Source: Sutcliffiella horikoshii (GTDB taxonomy: Bacteria; Bacillota; Bacilli; Bacillales; Bacillaceae_I). Taken from it: 64,000 nt of DNA. The notes beneath the pieces were generated by a model. It did no database searches and was not told where the DNA came from. It saw nothing but the letters and a program-made list of their open reading frames with translations. Below are positions 1-19,471 of this stretch, piece by piece. Where the stretch lies: contig KV440964.1 of assembly GCA_001636495.1 (NCBI GenBank), positions 1,442,666-1,506,665 on the forward strand, read 5' to 3'. The position numbers and the translations under genes are program-made. Each line of letters opens with the position of its first letter. Within the stretch, counting starts at the first letter, position 1.

Positions 1-1137
1 AGTTTTTTATCGGGGGGCATTGATTCCACCATTATTACTACTCTGGCGAAGGAGTTTCATCCTGATATCCACACGTTCTCAGTCGGTTTTGAAATAGAAG
101 GATATAGTGAAATGGATGTGGCTTCACAGACAGCAGAGGCACTGGGGGTCAAAAACATCCAATATACTATCACAGCGGAGGAATTCAGGAGGGAACTGCC
201 CAAGATAATTTGGCACCTGGATGAAATGGTGGCAGATCCCGCGGCGGTTCCACTCTACTTTCTTGCTCGTGAAGCAAGGAAACATGTAAAAGTGGCTTTG
301 TCAGGGGAGGGGGCGGATGAGCTATTTGGAGGCTACAATATTTACCGGGAACCCCATTCCTTGCAAGTGTTCTCCTATCTTCCACCTATCGTAAAAAAAT
401 GTTTGCGATACTTGGCAAAGGAAATGCCGGATGGGATGAAAGGGAAGAGCTTTATCTTAAGGGGCTGCTCGGATTTGTCAGAACGCTTTATCGGAAATGC
501 GCATATCTTTTCTCAAGAAGAAAAGCCATTTTTATGGAAGGCATTTAAGGAGGATAACTCGGTTCATGCCATCACAGGTGAGATGTATAAACTGGCCCAA
601 AACTATGAGGATGTCACCAAGATGCAATACATCGACGTGATGACTTGGCTTAGAGGGGACATTCTTGTAAAGGCGGACCGGATGTCGATGGCCCACTCCT
701 TGGAGGTAAGGGTCCCGTTCTTGGATAAGAATGTCTTCGAAATCGCCTCATCCTTAACGGTTCCGAACAAAATCAATAGACACACGACCAAGTTTTTATT
801 AAGAGAAGCATTCAGGGATCAGGTTCCGGCACATGTGGTTGATAGGAAGAAGCTAGGATTTCCTGTTCCTTTAAGGGTCTGGTTGAAGGATGAACTGTAC
901 GAGTGGTCGGTAACGGTATTGGAGAATAGTGAAGCGGCAGGTCAGTGGTTCCATATGGCCTATGTAAGAAGATTGCTAGAAGACCACCGGAATGGAAAAC
1001 GGGACAATAGCCGCAAGCTTTGGACCATTCTGGTGTTCTTGGTTTGGCATGATGTGTATGAGGAAAAAAGGAAGAGCTTTGATAGAAAGAGACAGCTACA
1101 GGATTTTATTTCAGGAGAATCAGAAAAGGAGGCGTGA
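1..1137 (+). CDS. asnB: Asparagine synthetase (glutamine-hydrolysing), C-terminal part
   Basis: Partial gene that enters the window already in frame. Only the C-terminal synthetase domain (about 378 residues) is visible. It begins inside the ATP pyrophosphatase loop SGGIDS (bases 10-27), which binds ATP to adenylate aspartate. Further on are the conserved SGEGADELFGGY stretch and the KADRMSMAHSLEVRVPFLD block typical of AsnB enzymes. The N-terminal glutaminase domain lies upstream of the window. The reaction is Asp + Gln + ATP to Asn + Glu in the cytoplasm. In B. subtilis asnB lies near ytoA-ytpAB, matching what follows here. It ends at a TGA in the loop of a terminator hairpin shared with the convergent glycosyltransferase gene. 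AsnO-type paralogues are the main alternative for the symbol; the family call is secure. Confidence 0.93.
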   Translation, partial: SFLSGGIDSTIITTLAKEFHPDIHTFSVGFEIEGYSEMDVASQTAEALGVKNIQYTITAEEFRRELPKIIWHLDEMVADPAAVPLYFLAREARKHVKVALSGEGADELFGGYNIYREPHSLQVFSYLPPIVKKCLRYLAKEMPDGMKGKSFILRGCSDLSERFIGNAHIFSQEEKPFLWKAFKEDNSVHAITGEMYKLAQNYEDVTKMQYIDVMTWLRGDILVKADRMSMAHSLEVRVPFLDKNVFEIASSLTVPNKINRHTTKFLLREAFRDQVPAHVVDRKKLGFPVPLRVWLKDELYEWSVTVLENSEAAGQWFHMAYVRRLLEDHRNGKRDNSRKLWTILVFLVWHDVYEEKRKSFDRKRQLQDFISGESEKEA

Positions 1138-11898: not shown

Positions 11899-12153
11899 AT
11901 GAGTGTTCAAAAAAGTACGGACAGTTCCAGTCTTGCAGAAGTTATTGATCGGATTCTTGATAAAGGAATCGTTATTGACGCATTTGTAAGAGTTTCATTG
12001 GTAGGAATTGAAATCCTTACAGTAGAAGCACGAGTGGTTATTGCAAGTGTGGATACATGGTTACGATACGCAGAAGCGGTTGGCCTTTTACGCGATGAGG
12101 TTCAGGAAGAAGGTCTTGCCAATAGAAATCAGGAGGGTCAGTTTAGTTTCTGA
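11899..12153 (+). CDS. gvpA: Gas vesicle major structural protein GvpA
   Basis: 84-residue shell protein. The conserved GvpA core runs from [20 protein letters not shown] (residues 9-28), two beta strands with the hydrophobic face lining the gas space, to [19 protein letters not shown]. It polymerises into the ribbed wall of the gas vesicle. The C-terminal tail ([14 protein letters not shown]) is short. RBS GAGAGGAG precedes. It is first in a 15-gene operon and differs from GvpB at only two positions in the first 67 residues (Leu34/Val, Asp67/Gly). Confidence 0.97.
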
Positions 12154-12199
12154 CCATTAACATGAATAAGCACACACAGAAGGGATGAGGTTGGTTTAC

Positions 12200-12634
12200 A
12201 TGGCAGTTAAAGAGAAGAACGAGCAGCAAGAAGAGAAGAATGATAATGGAAATTACTCCATTAACCTAGCAATCATTGGAGGAGTGGTCGGTGCAGGCAT
12301 CGGCTTACTATCCAGTCCTGGAACAAGTAAAAAGATTTATAGAAACATCAGCGAATCAGAAGTGGTGAAGGTTGCCGGCAATCAATTGAGAAGGTCAGCC
12401 CAAGAGATGTTGGCTGCCCAGGCGCAAAACGGGATCAAACAGCTGGCTTCAGGCTATATGGGTAAAAATGTTATAAGCCTATTGAATCCAACAAAAAGTA
12501 GCGAGAAGAAGGATGCTAAAGACAGCGATTCATCTTCAGATATGGAAGAAATGAAGGAAGAAAATAAAAATATTAACAATCGACTCGATAAGATTGAAAG
12601 CATGCTTAGTGAATTAGTGGATTCAAAGAAATAG
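12200..12634 (+). CDS. gvpP: Gas vesicle protein GvpP (YtxH-like)
   Basis: 144-residue protein with a Gly-rich hydrophobic stretch IIGGVVGAGIGLLSSPGT (residues 25-42) of the kind found in YtxH-like general-stress proteins. An amphipathic middle follows, then a charged C-terminus with coiled-coil segment MEEMKEENKNINNRLDKIES (115-134). The start at 12200 (MAVKEK) is favoured since GAGG lies about nine bases ahead; an alternative ATG at 12185 would overlap the RBS. Position 2 in the operon as in P. megaterium. It is an accessory rather than structural gas vesicle protein; exact role not established. Its coiled-coil matches those of GvpT, GvpU1 and GvpJ. Confidence 0.85.
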   Translation: MAVKEKNEQQEEKNDNGNYSINLAIIGGVVGAGIGLLSSPGTSKKIYRNISESEVVKVAGNQLRRSAQEMLAAQAQNGIKQLASGYMGKNVISLLNPTKSSEKKDAKDSDSSSDMEEMKEENKNINNRLDKIESMLSELVDSKK

Positions 12635-12671
12635 CTAGACCTCTTTTGATGAATCCAAAGGTGGTAATTGG

Positions 12672-13121
12672 ATGGGCAAAGAGATTAAAAAGACATTAGG
12701 CAAGGCGGCAAAAAAGGTAGTTGAACACACTCCGGAGCCGATTAAAGGGGAAATCAAAGATAAGGTCAAGGAAAAAGCGAAAGAAAAATTTGTGGACAGT
12801 GTCCAAGATAAAGCGGAGGAAGCAACGGAAAACCTCCAGGAGACAACAGAAGAGAATGCAGAGAAATTTCATGATAAAGCAGAAGAAGGTAAAGAAAAGG
12901 CACAGGATGCTTTACTTTCTGTCCGTGACAAGATAGGCAAAGTTGTCGAAGCGGGAGAGGACTTCCAAGAAAAGATGTCCTCGACAAATGATGATGACGA
13001 TGACCGCAAAATCAAAGGTGTGAAGAGCATCAAGAGCTATACGGATGTGAAAGGTGCCAACAATATTAAAAGCTCAACAAAAATAAAATCTTCAAATGAC
13101 ATTAAGACAATGGGATCTTGA
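12672..13121 (+). CDS. gvpQ: Gas vesicle protein GvpQ (LEA-like, highly charged)
   Basis: 149-residue hydrophilic protein, rich in Lys and Glu, with 11-residue-like amphipathic periodicity (KDKVKEKAKEKF, QDKAEEATENLQ, HDKAEEGKEKAQ) similar to LEA proteins and apolipoprotein-like helices. A run DDDDDR (about residues 112-117) separates it from a basic tail of short [IV]K-containing repeats (IKGVKSIKSY, IKSSTKIKSSNDIKT). GvpQ is the third gene in the P. megaterium order. The protein is probably natively disordered or surface-helical; function is unknown. RBS AAAGGTGG. Confidence 0.82.
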   Translation: MGKEIKKTLGKAAKKVVEHTPEPIKGEIKDKVKEKAKEKFVDSVQDKAEEATENLQETTEENAEKFHDKAEEGKEKAQDALLSVRDKIGKVVEAGEDFQEKMSSTNDDDDDRKIKGVKSIKSYTDVKGANNIKSSTKIKSSNDIKTMGS

Positions 13122-13147
13122 TGACTGAATGAAAGGAGAAATGATGT

Positions 13148-13408
13148 ATGTCCGTTCAAAAAAGTACAGATAGTTCAAGTTTAGCAGAGGTCATTGACCG
13201 CATTTTGGACAAAGGAATTGTTATTGATGCCTTTGTACGTGTTTCAGTAGTAGGAATTGAAATTTTAACGGTTGAGGCAAGAGTCGTAATTGCAAGTGTT
13301 GATACATGGTTACGATACGCGGAGGCGGTTGGATTACTTCGTGATGGAGTAGAAGAAAACGGGCTCCCTGAACAGCAAAACGAACGCAGCCCGCGCTTTA
13401 GTATTTAG
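13148..13408 (+). CDS. gvpB: Gas vesicle structural protein GvpB (second GvpA)
   Basis: 86-residue GvpA paralogue. Residues 1-66 are identical to GvpA except Leu34 to Val; the tails differ ([15 protein letters not shown]). The DNA differs at many third codon positions, so the identity is held by selection on the protein and not by a recent copy. RBS AAAGGAGAAATG. It lies after gvpQ, and a stable hairpin follows directly. In P. megaterium GvpB is likewise the second shell protein. Confidence 0.96.
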
Positions 13409-13418
13409 ATATTAGAAT

Positions 13419-13455
13419 GGGAAGCAACCAAGTGGATTTTCACTTGGTCCTTCCC
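13419..13455 (+). other. Hairpin between gvpB and gvpR
   Basis: GGGAAG (13419-13424) + ACCAAGTG (13427-13434), loop GATTTT, CACTTGGT (13441-13448) + CTTCCC (13450-13455). The following sequence TTCTATTTATG is only mildly T-rich. It therefore fits a partial terminator or mRNA 3'-end stabiliser separating gvpA-P-Q-B from the assembly genes, not a full stop. Confidence 0.7.
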
Positions 13456-13478
13456 TTCTATTTATGCAGGAGGTCCAT

Positions 13479-13745
13479 ATGGAAATCAAAAAGATTATGG
13501 GGAATGTCGCCGATTTCTTCAATGAATTTGTCGCACCCCTTCATAAAATCACCTCAGTTGAAGAAAGTGACAACGAGGGATGGAAACTGACAGTAGAAGT
13601 AATTGAAGAAAAGGAATATATGAAAAAGTATGCAAAAGATGAAATGTTAGGTATATATGACGTCCATCTTAATAAAGACAAAGAAGTCACTTCTTATAAA
13701 AGGCGTGATATCAGGTATAGAAGTTCCATTAAACATGAGGGATAG
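13479..13745 (+). CDS. gvpR: Gas vesicle protein GvpR (GvpO family)
   Basis: 88-residue protein with the GvpO fold signature: helix then WKLTVEVIEEKEYMKKYAKDEMLGIYDVHLNKDKEVTSYKRRDIRYR, where a Glu-rich strand leads to a Y-x-V and YxRxxRY ending. The start at 13479 follows a strong AGGAGG at 13468-13473; an upstream ATG at 13464 overlaps that RBS. GvpO/GvpR proteins are required or accessory for vesicle formation in archaea and Bacillus. First gene after the gvpB hairpin. Confidence 0.85.
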   Translation: MEIKKIMGNVADFFNEFVAPLHKITSVEESDNEGWKLTVEVIEEKEYMKKYAKDEMLGIYDVHLNKDKEVTSYKRRDIRYRSSIKHEG

Positions 13746-13770
13746 CAAGTGGTGAGTAGGAGGGAATGGA

Positions 13771-14685
13771 GTGACGGTTTTAAAAGAAAAAATAAAGAAA
13801 GATTCAAGGGCATTAATCCAAGATTCTGAGACGAAGGATTTACTTTCTCGCTCACTGCAGTATTTAAAGGCCGGATATCCAATTCATTTTACTGGCCCTT
13901 CTGGTGCAGGTAAAACTTCCATGGCACTCGCTCTTGCAAAAAAGAGGAAAAAGCCTGTTATGCTCATACACGGAAATCATGAGTTGAACAATAAGGATCT
14001 AATAGGTGACTTTACAGGGTATACAAGTAAAAAAGTGGTAGATAACTATATCCGTTCCGTCTATAAGAAAGATGAAAGTATAACAGAAACTTGGAGGGAC
14101 GGTCGTTTGTTGGAAGCTGTGAAAAACGGCTACACGCTAGTGTACGATGAGTTTACCAGGTCTCAACCAACGACAAATAATATCTTCCTATCCATATTGG
14201 AGGAAGGTGTTCTTCCGTTGTATGGATCAAAGCTGACAGAACCCTTTGTACCGGTTCATCCGGATTTTGCCGTAATCTTTACAAGCAACCCTGATGAATA
14301 TGCAGGTGTTTTTCATACACAGGATGCCCTGCTGGACCGATTGATTACCATCCATGTTGATTATAAAGAGGTGGATAGGGAAGCAAAGATCGTTTCACAG
14401 AAAGTCGACATCAAAGAGGAAAAAGCAAAAGCCATCACGGCCCTAGTTGCAGACCTCCGTAAAGCGTGTAAAAAGAACGGTCCCAGTTTACGTGCTTCCC
14501 TGATGATTGCCAAATTGGCATCAGAGGGAGATATTCCAATAGATGGGGATAACGAAGACTTCAAGCGACTTTGCAAGGATATACTCGGACATCAATTAAG
14601 TAGATGTTTGGATAGCGAACAGCCGCTGAAAGAAGCAGAAAAATTGATTTTAAAGGCCTGTGAAAATATGAAGGTCATTGAGTAA
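13771..14685 (+). CDS. gvpN: Gas vesicle AAA+ ATPase GvpN
   Basis: 304-residue MoxR-type AAA+ ATPase. Walker A is GPSGAGKTS (residues 42-50), Walker B is TLVYDEF (122-128) and the sensor-1 region is VIFTSNPDEYAG; LLDRLITIHVDY follows with the arginine-finger zone. GvpN is thought to drive vesicle enlargement from bicones to cylinders. The start is GTG at 13771 with AGGAGGG upstream; the ATG five bases earlier is out of frame. gvpF begins 16 bp downstream. Confidence 0.95.
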   Translation: MTVLKEKIKKDSRALIQDSETKDLLSRSLQYLKAGYPIHFTGPSGAGKTSMALALAKKRKKPVMLIHGNHELNNKDLIGDFTGYTSKKVVDNYIRSVYKKDESITETWRDGRLLEAVKNGYTLVYDEFTRSQPTTNNIFLSILEEGVLPLYGSKLTEPFVPVHPDFAVIFTSNPDEYAGVFHTQDALLDRLITIHVDYKEVDREAKIVSQKVDIKEEKAKAITALVADLRKACKKNGPSLRASLMIAKLASEGDIPIDGDNEDFKRLCKDILGHQLSRCLDSEQPLKEAEKLILKACENMKVIE

Positions 14686-14701
14686 TAAAGGAGAGTCTAA
14701 T

Positions 14702-15466
14702 ATGAGCCAAGAGAAAATGGGTATATATATCATCTGTGGAATCCAGACAGATGCAGAAGAGGAATTTGGTCACATCGAATTGGAAGGGGAAAGAAGAGAA
14801 CTCTTCACGATTTCGTATAAAGACTCTGCCATGGTAGCTGCAGAAGTGCCAATGAAAATCTACCATCCAAATAAAGAAAACCTGATGATGCATCAGCAAG
14901 CGATTTCCCTTGTAATGAAGCAAAATGATACCGTCATTCCTGTAAGCTTCGGTAATGTTTTTCATTCAAGAGAAGATGTAGCCGTCCTGCTTGAAAACTT
15001 ATATCCTCAATTCGAAAAACTTTTCCCAGCTATCAAAGGAAAAATCGAATTGGGATTAAAAGTAATAGGGAAAAAGGAATGGTTAGAAGAATTGGCTAAC
15101 GGGAATGAAAAAATGGGGAAAATGGCGGAGACGGTCCGAGGTAAATCGGAAGCAGCCAGCTACTATGAGCGAATTAAATTAGGGGAGGCAGCTCAAAAGC
15201 TTTTCCAATCCCTACAAGAAGAGATGCAAGCAGAAATCTTCCAACCATTGAAGGATACAGCAGAAGCATCTAAAGTGAATGACCCTATTGGAGAGAAGAT
15301 GTTGTTAAATGCCTCCTTTCTAATTGATAGGGATAAAGAAGAAGAGTTTGATCAAAAAGTGAATGAAGCTCACGATAAATGGAAGGATAAGGTCGATTTC
15401 AATTACAGTGGTCCATGGCCGGCCTACAACTTTGTCAATATCAGATTAACAGTTGAGGATGCTTAA
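14702..15466 (+). CDS. gvpF: Gas vesicle protein GvpF (GvpL/F family)
   Basis: 254-residue GvpL/F family protein. It shows the IYIICGIQ start, the 'vPvsFGNvF' strand (TVIPVSFGNVF) and the C-terminal SGPWPAYNFVNI signature of the family. GvpF binds GvpA at the gas-facing side and is considered a nucleation or chaperone factor. ATG 14702 is chosen on the AAAGGAGAG RBS; an upstream TTG (14678) lies inside gvpN. Its stop abuts the gvpG start with no gap. Confidence 0.93.
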   Translation: MSQEKMGIYIICGIQTDAEEEFGHIELEGERRELFTISYKDSAMVAAEVPMKIYHPNKENLMMHQQAISLVMKQNDTVIPVSFGNVFHSREDVAVLLENLYPQFEKLFPAIKGKIELGLKVIGKKEWLEELANGNEKMGKMAETVRGKSEAASYYERIKLGEAAQKLFQSLQEEMQAEIFQPLKDTAEASKVNDPIGEKMLLNASFLIDRDKEEEFDQKVNEAHDKWKDKVDFNYSGPWPAYNFVNIRLTVEDA

Positions 15467-15721
15467 ATGCTCCATAAAATTGTAGCTGCACCTATCAATC
15501 TTGTCATTAAAATCGGCGAGAAAGTGAAAGAGGAAGCGGACAAAGAACTATATGACCTTCCAACCATTCAAAAAAAGCTCATTCAATTGCAGATGATGTA
15601 TGAACTTGGTGAAATTCCGGATGAAGCATACAAAGAGAAGGAAGCCGAACTGTTGCACCGTTACGAAGTAGCCAAGAATTTGGAAATGGAACAATGGGAG
15701 CATTTGACCAAAAAGAAGTGA
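15467..15721 (+). CDS. gvpG: Gas vesicle protein GvpG
   Basis: 84-residue helical protein typical of GvpG: amphipathic N-terminus (HKIVAAPINLVIKIGEKV) then a long charged helix with LPTIQKKLIQLQMMYELGEIPDEAYKEKEAELL, the 'ELGEIxxEeyeexE' pattern shared by GvpG proteins. It starts at the base right after the gvpF stop codon, with GAGGA in the end of gvpF, so translation is coupled. It is part of the G-F-L assembly complex. Confidence 0.93.
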   Translation: MLHKIVAAPINLVIKIGEKVKEEADKELYDLPTIQKKLIQLQMMYELGEIPDEAYKEKEAELLHRYEVAKNLEMEQWEHLTKKK

Positions 15722-15731
15722 GGGTTAGAGT

Positions 15732-16538
15732 ATGGGGGAATTAATTTATTTATATGGGCTAGTCCCATCTAATGAATCAGCAAGCCTGCCGGTTCCGTCC
15801 ATGAAAGGGTTCGATGGAAAAGGTGATATATTCACTATATCAATAGGGGAAATAACCGCTATTGTAAGTACACTTGATCCACAAGAGTATTCAGAGGAAA
15901 TCATCAAAGAAAAGATTAATAGTGATATGGAATGGTTGCAGGAAAAAGCATTTCATCATCATGAAACAGTAATGGCACTATCGAAATTATATACGGTAAT
16001 ACCTTTAAAGTTCTGTACGTTGTATAAAAATGAAGATAGTTTAGTAGCTATTGTTCAGCAAAACCAGGTCAAGATGACAGAAACCTTTGCGCTATTAGAA
16101 GGCAATGAGGAATGGAATCTTAAAATATATTGCAATGATGAATTATTAAAGAAACAAGTAAGCCAGAGCAATCCTGCGATAGAAGAGCGAAGAGAAGAAA
16201 TCAGCCAATTATCCAAAGGAAAACAATTCTTTGAAAAGAAGAAATTAGATAAATTGATTGATGAAGAAGTGGAAAATGAAAAAGATCGTATCAGTGAAAA
16301 AATTCATACACATCTCCAAGAATTTGTTCTGCAAGGTAATGTAAAAAGGAATTGGAGCAAAGATGTGACAGGTAGAAAAGAAAACATGACCTGGAACAGT
16401 GTCTATCTGATCTCTTCCTCAAAAGTGGAACAGTTTTTAGAAGAAATCCAGCAGTTTGAAAAGAAAATGGGGGAGATGGGTTGGCAGTTTGAACCAACTG
16501 GACCATGGCCTGCCTATCACTTCTCAAGCTTTTCATGA
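15732..16538 (+). CDS. gvpL: Gas vesicle protein GvpL (GvpL/F family)
   Basis: 268-residue second member of the GvpL/F family: LIYLYGLVPSN start, VIPLKFCTLYKNE in the place of GvpF's FGNVF strand, a Lys/Glu-rich helical insert in the middle, and the same GPWPAYHFSSF ending. It is thought to act as the hub of the assembly complex. It starts 10 bp after gvpG with AGTGAGGG as RBS. Confidence 0.93.
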   Translation: MGELIYLYGLVPSNESASLPVPSMKGFDGKGDIFTISIGEITAIVSTLDPQEYSEEIIKEKINSDMEWLQEKAFHHHETVMALSKLYTVIPLKFCTLYKNEDSLVAIVQQNQVKMTETFALLEGNEEWNLKIYCNDELLKKQVSQSNPAIEERREEISQLSKGKQFFEKKKLDKLIDEEVENEKDRISEKIHTHLQEFVLQGNVKRNWSKDVTGRKENMTWNSVYLISSSKVEQFLEEIQQFEKKMGEMGWQFEPTGPWPAYHFSSFS

Positions 16539-16554
16539 GTGAGGATGACTATAT

Positions 16555-16830
16555 ATGTCCCATAGAGATTCAATAGAAAACAAGGATATAGCATTAATAG
16601 ATATTTTGGACGTCATACTTGATAAAGGTGTGGCAATAAAAGCGGATCTGGTCATTTCCATTGCGGGAGTTGATCTTGTGTACTTAGATCTCCGTGTCCT
16701 GATCGCATCTGTAGAATCCCTTGTCCAGGCACAGCAGGGAAATGGCAAGACGGTATCTTCCGTAGAATTTGATAATCAAAGGGAGGGGTTAATACATGCA
16801 ACCGGCCAACCCGACAAGTGGACGAATTAA
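16555..16830 (+). CDS. gvpS: Gas vesicle protein GvpS (GvpA/J family)
   Basis: 91-residue minor GvpA-like protein: IALIDILDVILDKGVAIKADLVISIAGVDLVYLDLRVLIASVESL is the shared GvpA/J/M/S core, but the C-terminus is distinct. It probably caps or nucleates the shell at low copy. Its 3' end overlaps the start of gvpK by 35 bp in a different frame. Confidence 0.9.
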   Translation: MSHRDSIENKDIALIDILDVILDKGVAIKADLVISIAGVDLVYLDLRVLIASVESLVQAQQGNGKTVSSVEFDNQREGLIHATGQPDKWTN

Positions 16831-17080
16831 TTTAGATCCTGATAAAGCGGAACACGGCTTGGCACAGCTTGTCCTAACAGTGGTGGAACTCTTAAGACAA
16901 ATCGTGGAACGTCATGCCATGCGCCGCGTCGAAGGCGGAACGCTGACCGATGAGCAGATTGAGGATCTGGGCGAAGCTTTAATGAACTTGGAAGAAAAGA
17001 TGGAAGAACTAAAAGAAATATTCGGCCTTGATGCAGAGGACTTGAATCTGGACCTAGGACCTTTAGGAAGCTTACTTTAA
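16796..17080 (+). CDS. gvpK: Gas vesicle protein GvpK
   Basis: 94-residue GvpK: RINLDPDKAEHGLAQLVLTVVELLRQIVERHAMRRVEGGTL followed by LTDEQIEDLGEALMNLEEKMEEL, the family's almost invariant sequence, ending in a D/L-rich tail (DLNLDLGPLGSLL). The RBS AAAGGGAGGGG lies inside gvpS, which it overlaps by 35 bp, implying translational coupling. Confidence 0.95.
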   Translation: MQPANPTSGRINLDPDKAEHGLAQLVLTVVELLRQIVERHAMRRVEGGTLTDEQIEDLGEALMNLEEKMEELKEIFGLDAEDLNLDLGPLGSLL

Positions 17081-17135
17081 TTCATTATTTTTAGGAAGCT
17101 TGCCTTCATTCAATACCCTAAGGAGGGTTCATATA

Positions 17136-17468
17136 ATGGCAGTTCAAACGACTGGACAATCAAGTACGATAGTGGATGTGCTTGAGAAAATATTAGACAA
17201 AGGTGTCGTAATCGCTGGTGACATCACAGTAGGTATCGCAGATGTGGAGCTGTTGACCATCAAGATACGCCTCATTGTCGCTTCTGTAGATAAAGCGAAA
17301 GAGATTGGCATGGATTGGTGGGAGACGGATCCTTACCTAAGCTCTAAAGCGGTTGATAACAACACCAAAGCATTGGAAGAGGAAAATAAAATGTTACAGG
17401 AGAGACTTGAATCTCTCGAAAGAAAACTAGATTCAAACCGATTAAATTCAACGGAATTCAACTACTAA
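17136..17468 (+). CDS. gvpJ: Gas vesicle protein GvpJ (GvpA/J family)
   Basis: 110-residue GvpJ. The GvpA-like core (VDVLEKILDKGVVIAGDITVGIADVELLTIKIRLIVASVDKA, residues 13-55) is followed by WWETDPYLSS and a coiled-coil tail NNTKALEEENKMLQERLESL (75-94). The start ATG 17136 follows AAGGAGG. A minor shell or nucleation component. The C-terminal helix resembles the coiled coil in GvpP, GvpT and GvpU1. Confidence 0.93.
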   Translation: MAVQTTGQSSTIVDVLEKILDKGVVIAGDITVGIADVELLTIKIRLIVASVDKAKEIGMDWWETDPYLSSKAVDNNTKALEEENKMLQERLESLERKLDSNRLNSTEFNY

Positions 17469-17483
17469 TAGGAGGTTTTTAAC

Positions 17484-18239
17484 ATGGCAGAAAACAAAGC
17501 AAACACTACAGAAAATCAAACAGAGGAACAAAATACGAATAAGGAAGAAACTTCATTTGCAGGTCCAATTACTCGTTCCATTGCAGGAGGAATCATCGGG
17601 GCAACAGTCGGCTATTTAGCTACTCCGGAGAACGGGAAAAAGCTAATGGATAGCATCGATACAGAGGCTCTTAAAACAAAGGGTTCCAGTTTTGGAGAAA
17701 CAGCGAAGGAAAAATCCAAGAAAGCTTTTGAATCTATTAAAAGCTCAACAAAAGGTCTATTTAATAAAGAAAATGAGGAAACAAGTGAAGAAGAGTCTGA
17801 AAATGAAGATTCCAATGAAGATGTTTCAAATGAAAAAGAAGTTGCTGCAACAAAAGAATCAACAAAAGATTCCACAAATGAAGATTACGAATCCCTGAAG
17901 GAAGAAAACAAAAACCTTACCGACCGATTAGGGAAATTGGAAGAAATGCTGACAAAACTAACGGATGAGAAAGAAACAGACAATAGCTCCGAAGAAGACA
18001 GCGAAGACGAAACTGAGGACGATAGTGAAGAGGAAACAGAAGTAGACAGCGAAGAGGAAACAGAGGACGAAGACGAAGATGATTCGGAAGATGATAGTAA
18101 CGAAGATGATAAGGAAAAGAAAAGTAAACCGAAAAAGAAGCGTTCTACAGCTAAAAAATCTTCTAAATCTTCTCAAAAGAAAAAAGATGAAGAAAACAAT
18201 GAAACCACTCTATCAAGTGATGACGATACTTCATCTTAA
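17484..18239 (+). CDS. gvpT: Gas vesicle protein GvpT (YtxH-like, long disordered tail)
   Basis: 251-residue protein in modules. N-terminal hydrophilic (1-26), Gly-rich hydrophobic YtxH-like segment SIAGGIIGATVGYLATPENG (32-51), linker, then coiled coil YESLKEENKNLTDRLGKLEE (135-154). After that come a 45-residue D/E/S stretch (about 165-209), a Lys/Ser stretch (210-234) and a short acidic end. The acidic stretch itself has DSEEETE-type repeats. It shares its layout with GvpP (shorter) and its tail with GvpU1. Role not established; the tail is predicted disordered and polyampholytic. RBS AGGAGG. Confidence 0.87.
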   Translation: MAENKANTTENQTEEQNTNKEETSFAGPITRSIAGGIIGATVGYLATPENGKKLMDSIDTEALKTKGSSFGETAKEKSKKAFESIKSSTKGLFNKENEETSEEESENEDSNEDVSNEKEVAATKESTKDSTNEDYESLKEENKNLTDRLGKLEEMLTKLTDEKETDNSSEEDSEDETEDDSEEETEVDSEEETEDEDEDDSEDDSNEDDKEKKSKPKKKRSTAKKSSKSSQKKKDEENNETTLSSDDDTSS

Positions 18240-18260
18240 TCAATGAAGGGAGCTTTTAAC

Positions 18261-18959
18261 ATGACTAATGAGCATGCGGCAGGGAAAGACAACATTCTTG
18301 CTTTCCTTGTCCAAGCAACGAATAAACATAATCTGTCTATCGATATCACATTAAATGTAAATGGTGCCATTGTCACAGGGACTATTGTTTCAGCTAAGGA
18401 ATATTTCGTTAGCTTGAGCGAGTCATTTGAGGATGGTAGCGAGGTTGCTCAACAGCTTAGTGAAAAGTTCGCACAAGCAGGAGAAGCAATCGATTCAGGG
18501 GATGGTGGTGAAGCAAGCTTTATTCATCTTAAAGATGCAAAAGTATTTTGTGGAAGCAGTAAACCAACCCCATCCAAGGGAGAAGCCCTTTGGAGAGGGC
18601 CGCTAAGTGATATTAATGGCTTTTATTTAGATAATATCCCTGATAGCGCAGAAGAGGATGCAGAATCGGACAATGGCGACTATCAATCATTGAAAGAGAA
18701 GAACAGCAAACTGACAGACCGGATCGGAAAACTGGAAGAGATGATAACTAAACTTAGCCCTGATAAAGAAGAAGAGGATAAGGCCGAAGAGTCTGAAGAT
18801 GAACCGGAATCTGCAGAAAAACAAGATTCTGAAGAAGATACTTCTAAGGATGATAAAGAAAAAGAAGACAATGAGAAAAAGCGTTCAGGCACTAAATCTA
18901 GTTCTACCAAAGCAAAAAAGAAATCATCATCATCTAAAAAGACAGCCAAAGCTGAATAA
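18261..18959 (+). CDS. gvpU: Gas vesicle protein GvpU, copy 1, with GvpT-like tail
   Basis: 232 residues. Residues 1-130 are a GvpU domain (DITLNVNGAIVTGTIVSAKEYF; ASFIHLKDAKVFCG; KPTPSKGEALWRGPL). Residues 141-166 are a coiled coil (YQSLKEKNSKLTDRIGKLEE and following), 169-205 acidic, and 206-230 Lys/Ser rich. The last three modules have the same order as GvpT's C-terminus and are absent from copy 2. P. megaterium GvpU has been reported to cluster vesicles by phase separation; an added disordered tail would be expected to change that. The start at 18261 follows AAGGGAG; an ATG at 18243 overlaps the RBS. Confidence 0.9.
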   Translation: MTNEHAAGKDNILAFLVQATNKHNLSIDITLNVNGAIVTGTIVSAKEYFVSLSESFEDGSEVAQQLSEKFAQAGEAIDSGDGGEASFIHLKDAKVFCGSSKPTPSKGEALWRGPLSDINGFYLDNIPDSAEEDAESDNGDYQSLKEKNSKLTDRIGKLEEMITKLSPDKEEEDKAEESEDEPESAEKQDSEEDTSKDDKEKEDNEKKRSGTKSSSTKAKKKSSSSKKTAKAE

Positions 18960-19020
18960 AGCAAGACAGGGAGCAGAAATGGTCTGACTTTCTTTTCAAC
19001 TTAAGAAAGGGGAAGTGTGA

Positions 19021-19416
19021 ATGAATAGTGAGCTTAGTGCCAAAAAGGACAGTATTTTAGAGTTCTTTGTGCAAGCTGCCAATCGGCATGGCTTTTCATT
19101 AGATATCACCTTGAACGTTAACGGTGCTGTTATATCTGGTACTCTAATTTCGGCAAAGGATTACTTTGAAACGATGAGTGAAACCTTTGAAGATGGGAAT
19201 GAAATAGCACAAAAAATCAGTGATCAACTTGCAACTGCAGGGGAAAGCGTTGATTCTAGTCAAGGTGCAGAAGCGAATTTCATCCATCTAAAAAACACGA
19301 AGGTTTATTGTGGTGACAGTAAACCCACTCCTTCAGAAGGAAAGATTCTCTGGAGAGGGAACTTAAATGAAGTTGACGGTTTTTTCTTAGGAAGGATATC
19401 AGATAGTGGATCTTAA
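19021..19416 (+). CDS. gvpU: Gas vesicle protein GvpU, copy 2
   Basis: 131-residue GvpU of conventional length: ILEFFVQAANRHGFSLDITL, NGAVISGTLISAKDYFETMS, ANFIHLKNTKVYCGDSKPTP and LWRGNLNEVDGFFLGRI. By eye it is roughly 60% identical to the GvpU domain of copy 1 and ends right after that domain. RBS GAAAGGGGAA. It is last in the gvp operon, 15 bp before a strong terminator. Confidence 0.92.
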   Translation: MNSELSAKKDSILEFFVQAANRHGFSLDITLNVNGAVISGTLISAKDYFETMSETFEDGNEIAQKISDQLATAGESVDSSQGAEANFIHLKNTKVYCGDSKPTPSEGKILWRGNLNEVDGFFLGRISDSGS

Positions 19417-19430
19417 ACTATATAGGTCAG

Positions 19431-19471
19431 AAAAAGCAGCTGTCAGAAATGCATTCCGACAGCTGCTTTTT
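19431..19471. terminator. Terminator of the gvp operon (and of ggt)
   Basis: Perfect 14-bp stem AAAAAGCAGCTGTC (19431-19444) / GACAGCTGCTTTTT (19458-19471). It works in both directions for gvpU and convergent ggt. Confidence 0.93.

What the first reader, a model, noticed from the sequence alone, without database searches (positions are those of the whole stretch)
18261..19416. GvpU duplicated; copy 1 carries a GvpT-type disordered tail
Directly seen: two adjacent GvpU domains. Copy 1 continues after its domain into coiled coil, acidic and Lys/Ser modules in the same order as the end of GvpT immediately upstream. The coiled-coil cores read SLKEENKNLTDRLGKLEEM in GvpT and SLKEKNSKLTDRIGKLEEM in GvpU1. 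Known: P. megaterium GvpU is reported to control vesicle clustering through phase transition. Inference: a tandem GvpU duplication followed by capture of the GvpT tail created a two-component system, one GvpU with a polyampholyte sticker and one without, that could tune vesicle clustering.
Basis: partly seen in the sequence, partly recalled or inferred. Interest (0 to 1): 0.75.

Follow-up and report, generated by a model that had tools for sequence, protein, structure and literature searches.

The report
Tailed and untailed GvpU gene pair
A bacterium that makes gas-filled flotation vesicles carries two copies of a vesicle-organising protein, and the first copy has gained a zipper-like tail resembling that of its neighbour GvpT, which may link the two proteins.

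Summary
In a Sutcliffiella gas-vesicle operon, gvpT is followed by two GvpU genes. Copy 1 (18261-18959) has a 104-residue tail: a 25-residue coil, an acidic stretch and a Lys/Ser end. Copy 2 (19021-19416) has none. In this genome the tail matches only GvpT (57%, E 5e-10). Tailed GvpU is rare: 10 of 86 loci compared, in each directly after GvpT and followed by a short GvpU; the other 76 end within 12 residues of the domain.

Corrections: (1) The best-conserved part is a short zipper (NxxhxxRhxxhE), also found in GvpP (55 of 65 loci), GvpJ (81 of 82) and GvpT (65 of 78). The acidic part is variable. (2) The tail lacks GvpT's conserved C-terminal tip. (3) GvpT capture is supported for Sutcliffiella; the Alkalihalophilus coil is no closer to its own GvpT than shuffles. 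One origin or two is unresolved.

Best reading: copy 1 is an adaptor joining the GvpU domain to zipper-bearing accessory proteins, GvpT first; copy 2 keeps the bare domain. The anatomy is shown; the function is inferred, and one paper could not confirm GvpU-driven clustering. Side lead: the predicted GvpU domain resembles Sm/LSm proteins.

The parts
12542..12616 (+). zipper coil at the C-terminus of GvpP (MEEMKEENKNINNRLDKIESMLSEL)
17136..17468 (+). gvpJ (likely start at 17136; the longest ORF begins at 17100); zipper coil at 17364-17438
17484..18239 (+). gvpT, 251 aa, NF041669 152 bits
17886..17960 (+). zipper coil of GvpT (YESLKEENKNLTDRLGKLEEMLTKL), inside an AF2 helix (residues 128-166) with block pLDDT 86-95 over residues 131-160, the best-ordered part of an otherwise poor GvpT model (mean 55.9)
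18204..18236 (+). conserved C-terminal tip of GvpT (TTLSSDDDTSS), absent from the copy-1 tail
18261..18959 (+). gvpU1, tailed copy, 232 aa (longest ORF begins at 18243; likely start 18261 behind AAGGGAG)
18282..18647 (+). GvpU domain of copy 1
18681..18755 (+). zipper coil of copy 1 (YQSLKEKNSKLTDRIGKLEEMITKL); coincides with the AF2 helix at residues 141-165
18756..18875 (+). acidic, variable-length segment of copy 1, low-confidence (probably disordered) in AF2
18876..18956 (+). Lys/Ser-rich end of copy 1
19021..19416 (+). gvpU2, untailed copy, 131 aa
19431..19471 (+). hairpin followed by a T-run after gvpU2 (-23.5 kcal/mol, z -4.2), probable operon terminator
   Evidence: the consensus scan reported none (its loop limit is 8 bases)

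Best explanation
gvpU1 is a true GvpU paralogue whose domain has been joined to a GvpT-type C-terminal half: a zipper-like helix, a probably disordered acidic spacer and a Lys/Ser end. Most likely it works as an adaptor. Its domain does whatever GvpU does at the vesicle surface (reported elsewhere: action through the GvpA C-terminus, and clustering). Its zipper pairs with itself or with the same zipper on GvpT, and possibly on GvpP and GvpJ, so that GvpU and GvpT act as one connected network. gvpU2 supplies the same domain without the link, so the U1:U2 ratio would set how strongly the two are coupled. Shown: both genes, full-length domains, tail likeness to GvpT beyond composition, shared zipper signature, tail rarity, co-occurrence. 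Inferred: zipper pairing, adaptor role, effect of the ratio.
For: The copy-1 tail matches only GvpT in its genome. Its coil is closest to the GvpT of its own genus: mean 17.3 of 25 identical, against 10.2 for GvpT outside Sutcliffiella, the Alkalihalophilus group and L121. NxxhxxRhxxhE: GvpT 65 of 78 loci, GvpP 55 of 65, GvpJ 81 of 82, Sutcliffiella U1 6 of 6, last-copy GvpU tails 0 of 86, unassigned frames of 80+ aa 4 of 2856. Read as heptads the U1 and GvpT coils have Leu at every d, an Asn at one a, and an Arg and Glu placed for a g-e' pair. AF2 puts a helix exactly on the U1 coil (block pLDDT 76-91) and a longer one over the GvpT coil (86-95), with low confidence after both. Among six genomes the U1 coil (89%) is as conserved as its domain (84%), the acidic part is not (65%). 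Identical T and U1 residues share a codon in only 6 of 19 cases in the window (5 to 11 of 16 to 19 over the six), so protein-level selection rather than recent copying keeps them alike. Published P. megaterium work reports a GvpT dimer, GvpT-G-J and GvpU-L-J contacts, and GvpU/GvpT-mediated clustering (PMC11445434, passages; PMC10903477, section 8).
Against: No interaction was tested. A GvpU-GvpJ contact is reported for P. megaterium; no single-copy GvpU here has a zipper (0 of 86 last-copy tails), so such contact need not use one. T and U1 zippers do not co-vary across species: L100 GvpT has N where U1 keeps T, and L100 and L117 U1 have A where GvpT keeps G. The coil carries the R-h-x-x-h-E motif linked to trimers as well as an Asn that favours dimers (recalled), so the oligomer is unclear. 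The Alkalihalophilus-group U1 coil lacks the Asn at that position (0 of 4) and is no closer to its GvpT than shuffles (L102 163 of 500, L125 268 of 500 as high), so the supposed partner is not general. PMC11223475 could not confirm a GvpU effect on clustering.
Confidence: 0.45

Rival explanations
1. Polyampholyte sticker: the acidic and Lys/Ser blocks drive condensation by charge attraction and the coil only adds valence.
For: Acidic block 44-61% Asp/Glu and 11-12 Lys/Arg in the last 30 residues in all 10 tailed copies, including the Alkalihalophilus-group ones whose coil differs. In L102 and L125 the acidic plus Lys/Ser part, not the coil, is what exceeds shuffles against GvpT (4 and 6 of 500 as high).
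Against: Net charge of the tail is negative in all 10 (-8 to -38); the acidic block is the least conserved part in Sutcliffiella.
Confidence: 0.25
2. Division of an old role: most single GvpU end in a short basic tip; after duplication copy 1 kept and enlarged it and copy 2 lost it, so that copy 2 is a tip-less version.
For: Lys/Arg after the domain in 61 of 76 single GvpU, 10 of 10 U1, 0 of 10 U2.
Against: Only two lineages, so it may be coincidence; the function of the tip is unknown. It is compatible with the adaptor reading.
Confidence: 0.2
3. Near-neutral dosage duplication with a dispensable tail.
For: GvpT and GvpU are dispensable for vesicle formation from the P. megaterium cluster in E. 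coli (PMC11223475); disordered tails vary freely.
Against: Coil and Lys/Ser end are conserved across six Sutcliffiella genomes, and the tail is an open frame in all 10 loci.
Confidence: 0.1
4. Two independent origins: GvpU was duplicated and the copy next to gvpT was tailed once in Sutcliffiella (from GvpT) and once in the Alkalihalophilus group (from another source). This concerns history, not function, and can be true together with any of the others.
For: Sutcliffiella groups with the single-GvpU locus L121 on the operon tree (SH-aLRT 98, 96); U1 coils differ, and only the Sutcliffiella one is specifically like GvpT.
Against: The first 45 tail residues of window U1 and L102 U1 are more alike than shuffles (6 of 1000 as high; whole tails 20 of 500). 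The GvpU-domain tree joins all ten U2 copies (87/92). Holding all U1 together costs 0.04 log units and all U2 nothing, whereas lineage-wise duplication costs 10.2 and 4.5 (not rejected, p-AU 0.17 and 0.39). On the operon tree, holding Sutcliffiella, L121 and the Alkalihalophilus group together gave a tree 9.0 log units better than the free search had found, and the tailed operons without L121 are not rejected as a clade (p-AU 0.53).
Confidence: 0.35

Closest known systems
GvpU (NCBIfam NF041667) as in P. megaterium and other Bacillaceae
   Same: Domain, operon position after gvpT, invariant residues
   Different: One copy with at most 12 residues after the domain in 76 of 76 single-copy loci here; here two copies, the first with a 104-residue tail
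GvpT/GvpP (NCBIfam NF041669)
   Same: Zipper coil; with GvpT also an acidic stretch and a Lys/Ser stretch
   Different: U1 lacks the YtxH-like N-terminal half and the conserved C-terminal tip; 31 bits against a cut-off of 80
Tailed GvpU of Alkalihalophilus pseudofirmus OF4 and A. marmarensis (L102, L103) and of two unnamed relatives (L124, L125)
   Same: GvpT, tailed GvpU, short GvpU in that order; acidic and Lys/Ser tail
   Different: Coil lacks the Asn and the first heptad and is no closer to the local GvpT than shuffles (tested on L102 and L125)

Membership tests
GvpU (NF041667) | Profile score over the curated cut-off of 70 bits, full length | tested here: met
   U1 155 bits, U2 184.9 bits, profile 1-117 in both
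GvpU (NF041667) | Lies in a gas-vesicle operon | tested here: met
   gvpA, P, Q, B, R, N, F, G, L, S, K, J, T directly upstream. P, Q and T over the NCBIfam cut-off; A, B, S and J over the GvpA-type Pfam cut-off; the remaining names by position in the published order
GvpU (NF041667) | Phase transition and vesicle clustering | not testable with these tools
   Reported for P. megaterium (as cited in PMC11445434); not confirmed in PMC11223475
GvpT (NF041669) | Profile score over the cut-off of 80 bits | tested here: not met
   U1 31.1 bits; shares the coil and tail, is not a GvpT
GvpT (NF041669) | Conserved C-terminal tip (DDT type in 62 of 78 loci, TYL type in 15 of 78) | tested here: not met
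   0 of 10 tailed GvpU
Sm/LSm-like proteins | Fold: helix plus five-stranded small barrel | tested here: inconclusive
   49 of the 50 listed PDB matches (of 378 at E up to 10) come from Sm/LSm or spliceosome entries, best E 7e-3, none under 0.001
Sm/LSm-like proteins | Sequence profile match | tested here: not met
   No LSM among the 25 of 40 Pfam families shown for 56 GvpU; no Sm chain among 15 PDB sequences, where the best was a ferritin at 0.008; the LSM model at E up to 10 does not pick any of the three GvpU-type genes of this genome

The most novel reading that the evidence does not exclude
GvpU is an Sm-like domain that assembles into rings, and in Sutcliffiella tailed and untailed subunits co-assemble, so that the U1:U2 ratio sets how many zippers each ring shows to GvpT, GvpP and GvpJ: a shared zipper code that wires the vesicle accessory proteins together.
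Probability: 0.12. Interest if true: 0.7.

Novelty: new variant of a known kind. Interest (0 to 1): 0.42.

Why it matters
How vesicles are gathered in Bacillota cells is open and the role of GvpU is disputed. A natural pair, the same domain with and without a GvpT-type tail in one operon, is a ready-made experiment for asking whether GvpU and GvpT work together. The zipper shared by GvpP, GvpJ, GvpT and GvpU1 offers a testable physical basis for reported contacts such as GvpT-GvpJ.

Tried and rejected
Long GvpU frames outside the two lineages: G036 (165), G224 (206), G326 (211) and G199 (214) proved to be N-terminal overhang of the reading frame, not tails; G060 (196) is the GvpU-like gene outside gas-vesicle operons, also with N-terminal overhang and no tail. 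Recent gene conversion between gvpT and gvpU1: not supported, since codons are scrambled. GvpT as the tail source in both lineages: not shown; the L102 and L125 coil parts are at shuffle level against their GvpT. Against other neighbours the result is mixed: L102 exceeds shuffles against its GvpJ (0 of 500) but not its GvpP (92 of 500), L125 against its GvpP (0 of 500) but not its GvpJ (263 of 500). The whole L102 and L125 tails do exceed shuffles against GvpT (1 of 500 each), through the acidic and Lys/Ser part. Single against double origin: left open; no AU test rejected either. A promoter between gvpS and the terminator: 5 consensus sites on both strands against 5.6 expected, taken as none. 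Sm membership by sequence: no support. Viral fold library: one match under 0.001, unnamed, not used. Papers: GvpU with 'tandem duplication' none; GvpU with 'Sm-like' none; GvpJ with 'coiled-coil' gave three haloarchaeal papers, seen as a listing only; GvpT/GvpP with zipper terms, listing only. All in the open-licence library only.

Rows dropped: of 102 loci (window, L055-L155), 12 were second copies of named loci, L132 is a fragment, L114 has a split GvpU, and L070 and L154 had no GvpQ hit, leaving 86. Some of the 86 are near-identical relatives, so they are not 86 independent cases. Trees used 98, 81, 85 and 48 rows; the rows left out are named in the scripts, mostly long branches and near-copies.

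Full report
Setting. The window lies in a Sutcliffiella genome (nearest named loci S. horikoshii, 92% and 83% identical in GvpU2). Gas-vesicle genes run from 11899 to 19416 in the order A, P, Q, B, R, N, F, G, L, S, K, J, T, U1, U2. P, Q, T, U1 and U2 have NCBIfam hits over the cut-off, and J weaker ones to GvpJ and GvpA models. Four GvpA-type matches lie in the genome, all in this operon: A, B, S and J. The other names follow the P. megaterium order APQBRNFGLSKJTU given in PMC11223475. A hairpin with a T-run closes the operon at 19431-19471.

The observation. U1 and U2 are both full-length GvpU (155 and 184.9 bits against a cut-off of 70), 58% identical. U1 continues for 104 residues after the domain, including a 25-residue coil, 40 acidic residues and a 27-residue Lys/Ser end. 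The tail matches GvpT (44% over 98 residues, E 3e-11) and, in the whole genome at E up to 10, nothing else besides itself.

How general. I compared 86 loci left after removing second copies and incomplete ones from 102. Ten have a tailed GvpU: six Sutcliffiella, which are all the genomes with a gas-vesicle GvpU among 16 of the genus, and four from another family, including Alkalihalophilus pseudofirmus OF4 and A. marmarensis. In 10 of 10 the tailed copy follows gvpT directly and a short copy follows it. The other 76 loci have one GvpU with at most 12 residues after the domain. Wider samples (397 genomes of the order; 398 of the class; 16 of the family of G203) gave no further tailed case, judged by open-frame length; the five other frames of more than 160 residues were N-terminal overhang.

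What the tail is. Its best-conserved core is a zipper that is not peculiar to GvpT. The pattern NxxhxxRhxxhE occurs in GvpT of 65 of 78 loci, GvpP of 55 of 65, GvpJ of 81 of 82 and Sutcliffiella U1 of 6 of 6. It occurs in 0 of 86 last-copy GvpU tails, 0 of 4 Alkalihalophilus-group U1 tails (which do have RhxxhE, 4 of 4) and 4 of 2856 unassigned frames. Read as heptads, the T and U1 coils have Leu at d, an Asn at one a position, and an Arg and Glu placed for a g-e' contact. R-h-x-x-h-E is a motif linked to trimers (PMC6173795, passages); a buried Asn at a favours parallel dimers (recalled). AlphaFold2 puts a helix exactly on the coil in U1 (residues 141-165, block pLDDT 76-91) and a longer one over it in GvpT (128-166, blocks 86-95), with low-confidence chain after it. 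The GvpT model as a whole is poor (mean pLDDT 55.9, pTM 0.19).

Where it came from. The Sutcliffiella U1 coil is closest to the GvpT of its own genus (17.3 of 25 identical on average), then to that of L121, a single-GvpU locus of the same family (15.8), then the Alkalihalophilus group (14.3), then other GvpT (10.2); GvpP (8.6-11.5) and GvpJ of the two groups (7.2-7.7) are further. Only 6 of 19 shared residues use the same codon in the window, so the likeness is old and kept at the protein level. In L102 and L125 the first 45 tail residues score no better against the local GvpT than shuffles (163 and 268 of 500 as high), although the whole tails do (1 of 500 each), through the acidic and Lys/Ser part (4 and 6 of 500). 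The first 45 residues of window and L102 U1 are more alike than shuffles (6 of 1000), which leaves a common source possible. The GvpU-domain tree joins all ten U2 (87/92) but not the U1. AU tests reject neither one nor two duplications. The operon tree places Sutcliffiella with L121 (98, 96), but a tree with the Alkalihalophilus group added to these scored 9.0 log units better than the free search's tree, so one origin with loss in L121 is not excluded.

What is constrained. Among six Sutcliffiella, mean identity is 84% for the U1 domain, 89% for its coil, 65% for the acidic part and 84% for the Lys/Ser end; U2 is 88%. GvpT's own conserved tip is absent from all ten tailed GvpU. Most single GvpU keep a short basic end (61 of 76 with Lys or Arg), U2 does not (0 of 10).

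Function. [quoted passage not shown] PMC10903477 (section 8) says that a study implicates both in aggregating vesicles through the GvpA C-terminus. [quoted passage not shown] The primary paper on GvpU phase transition (10.1038/s41564-024-01648-3) was not held, so I saw only citations of it. On this basis the adaptor reading is the best supported, at about 0.45. Every functional step is inference.

Side lead. The modelled U1 domain (helix, two strands, two helices, three strands) matches Sm/LSm or spliceosome entries in 49 of the 50 listed PDB hits, best E 7e-3 and none under 0.001. These entries are highly redundant, so the count overstates the evidence. All 56 GvpU examined have Gxx[LIVMASY]xG[TS] and WRG, which recall the two Sm motifs (recalled). 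Sequence profiles give no support. This is a lead, not a membership.

Noticed in passing
G000:C1:75477-75848 (L028:1468-1887): A GvpU-like protein outside any gas-vesicle operon, beside a LysE-like and an MFS-like transporter frame (names by eye). Similar genes (about 70-79 bits) are the only GvpU match in six Sutcliffiella genomes (G006, G008, G011, G012, G014, G015), so the domain is wider than gas vesicles.
   Followed up: partly
window 12542-12616, 17364-17438, 17886-17960: GvpP, GvpJ and GvpT share one zipper signature across Bacillaceae and relatives.
   Followed up: partly
window 18282-18647: The predicted GvpU domain resembles Sm/LSm proteins by fold, without sequence-profile support.
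   Followed up: partly
window 18204-18236: GvpT ends in a conserved tip with DDT in 62 of 78 loci; 15 of 78 have a TYL-type tip. Function unknown.
   Followed up: no
L071, L087, L088, L093, L104: Two or three GvpT-type genes in a row, some up to 803 residues long.
   Followed up: no
   Followed up: no
L114: GvpU of Gracilibacillus massiliensis is split over two frames; mutation or sequencing error not decided.
   Followed up: no
L154 (G348): A divergent GvpU (109 bits) between two GvpA-type genes at a second locus of a genome that also has a gvpQ-to-gvpU cluster.
   Followed up: no
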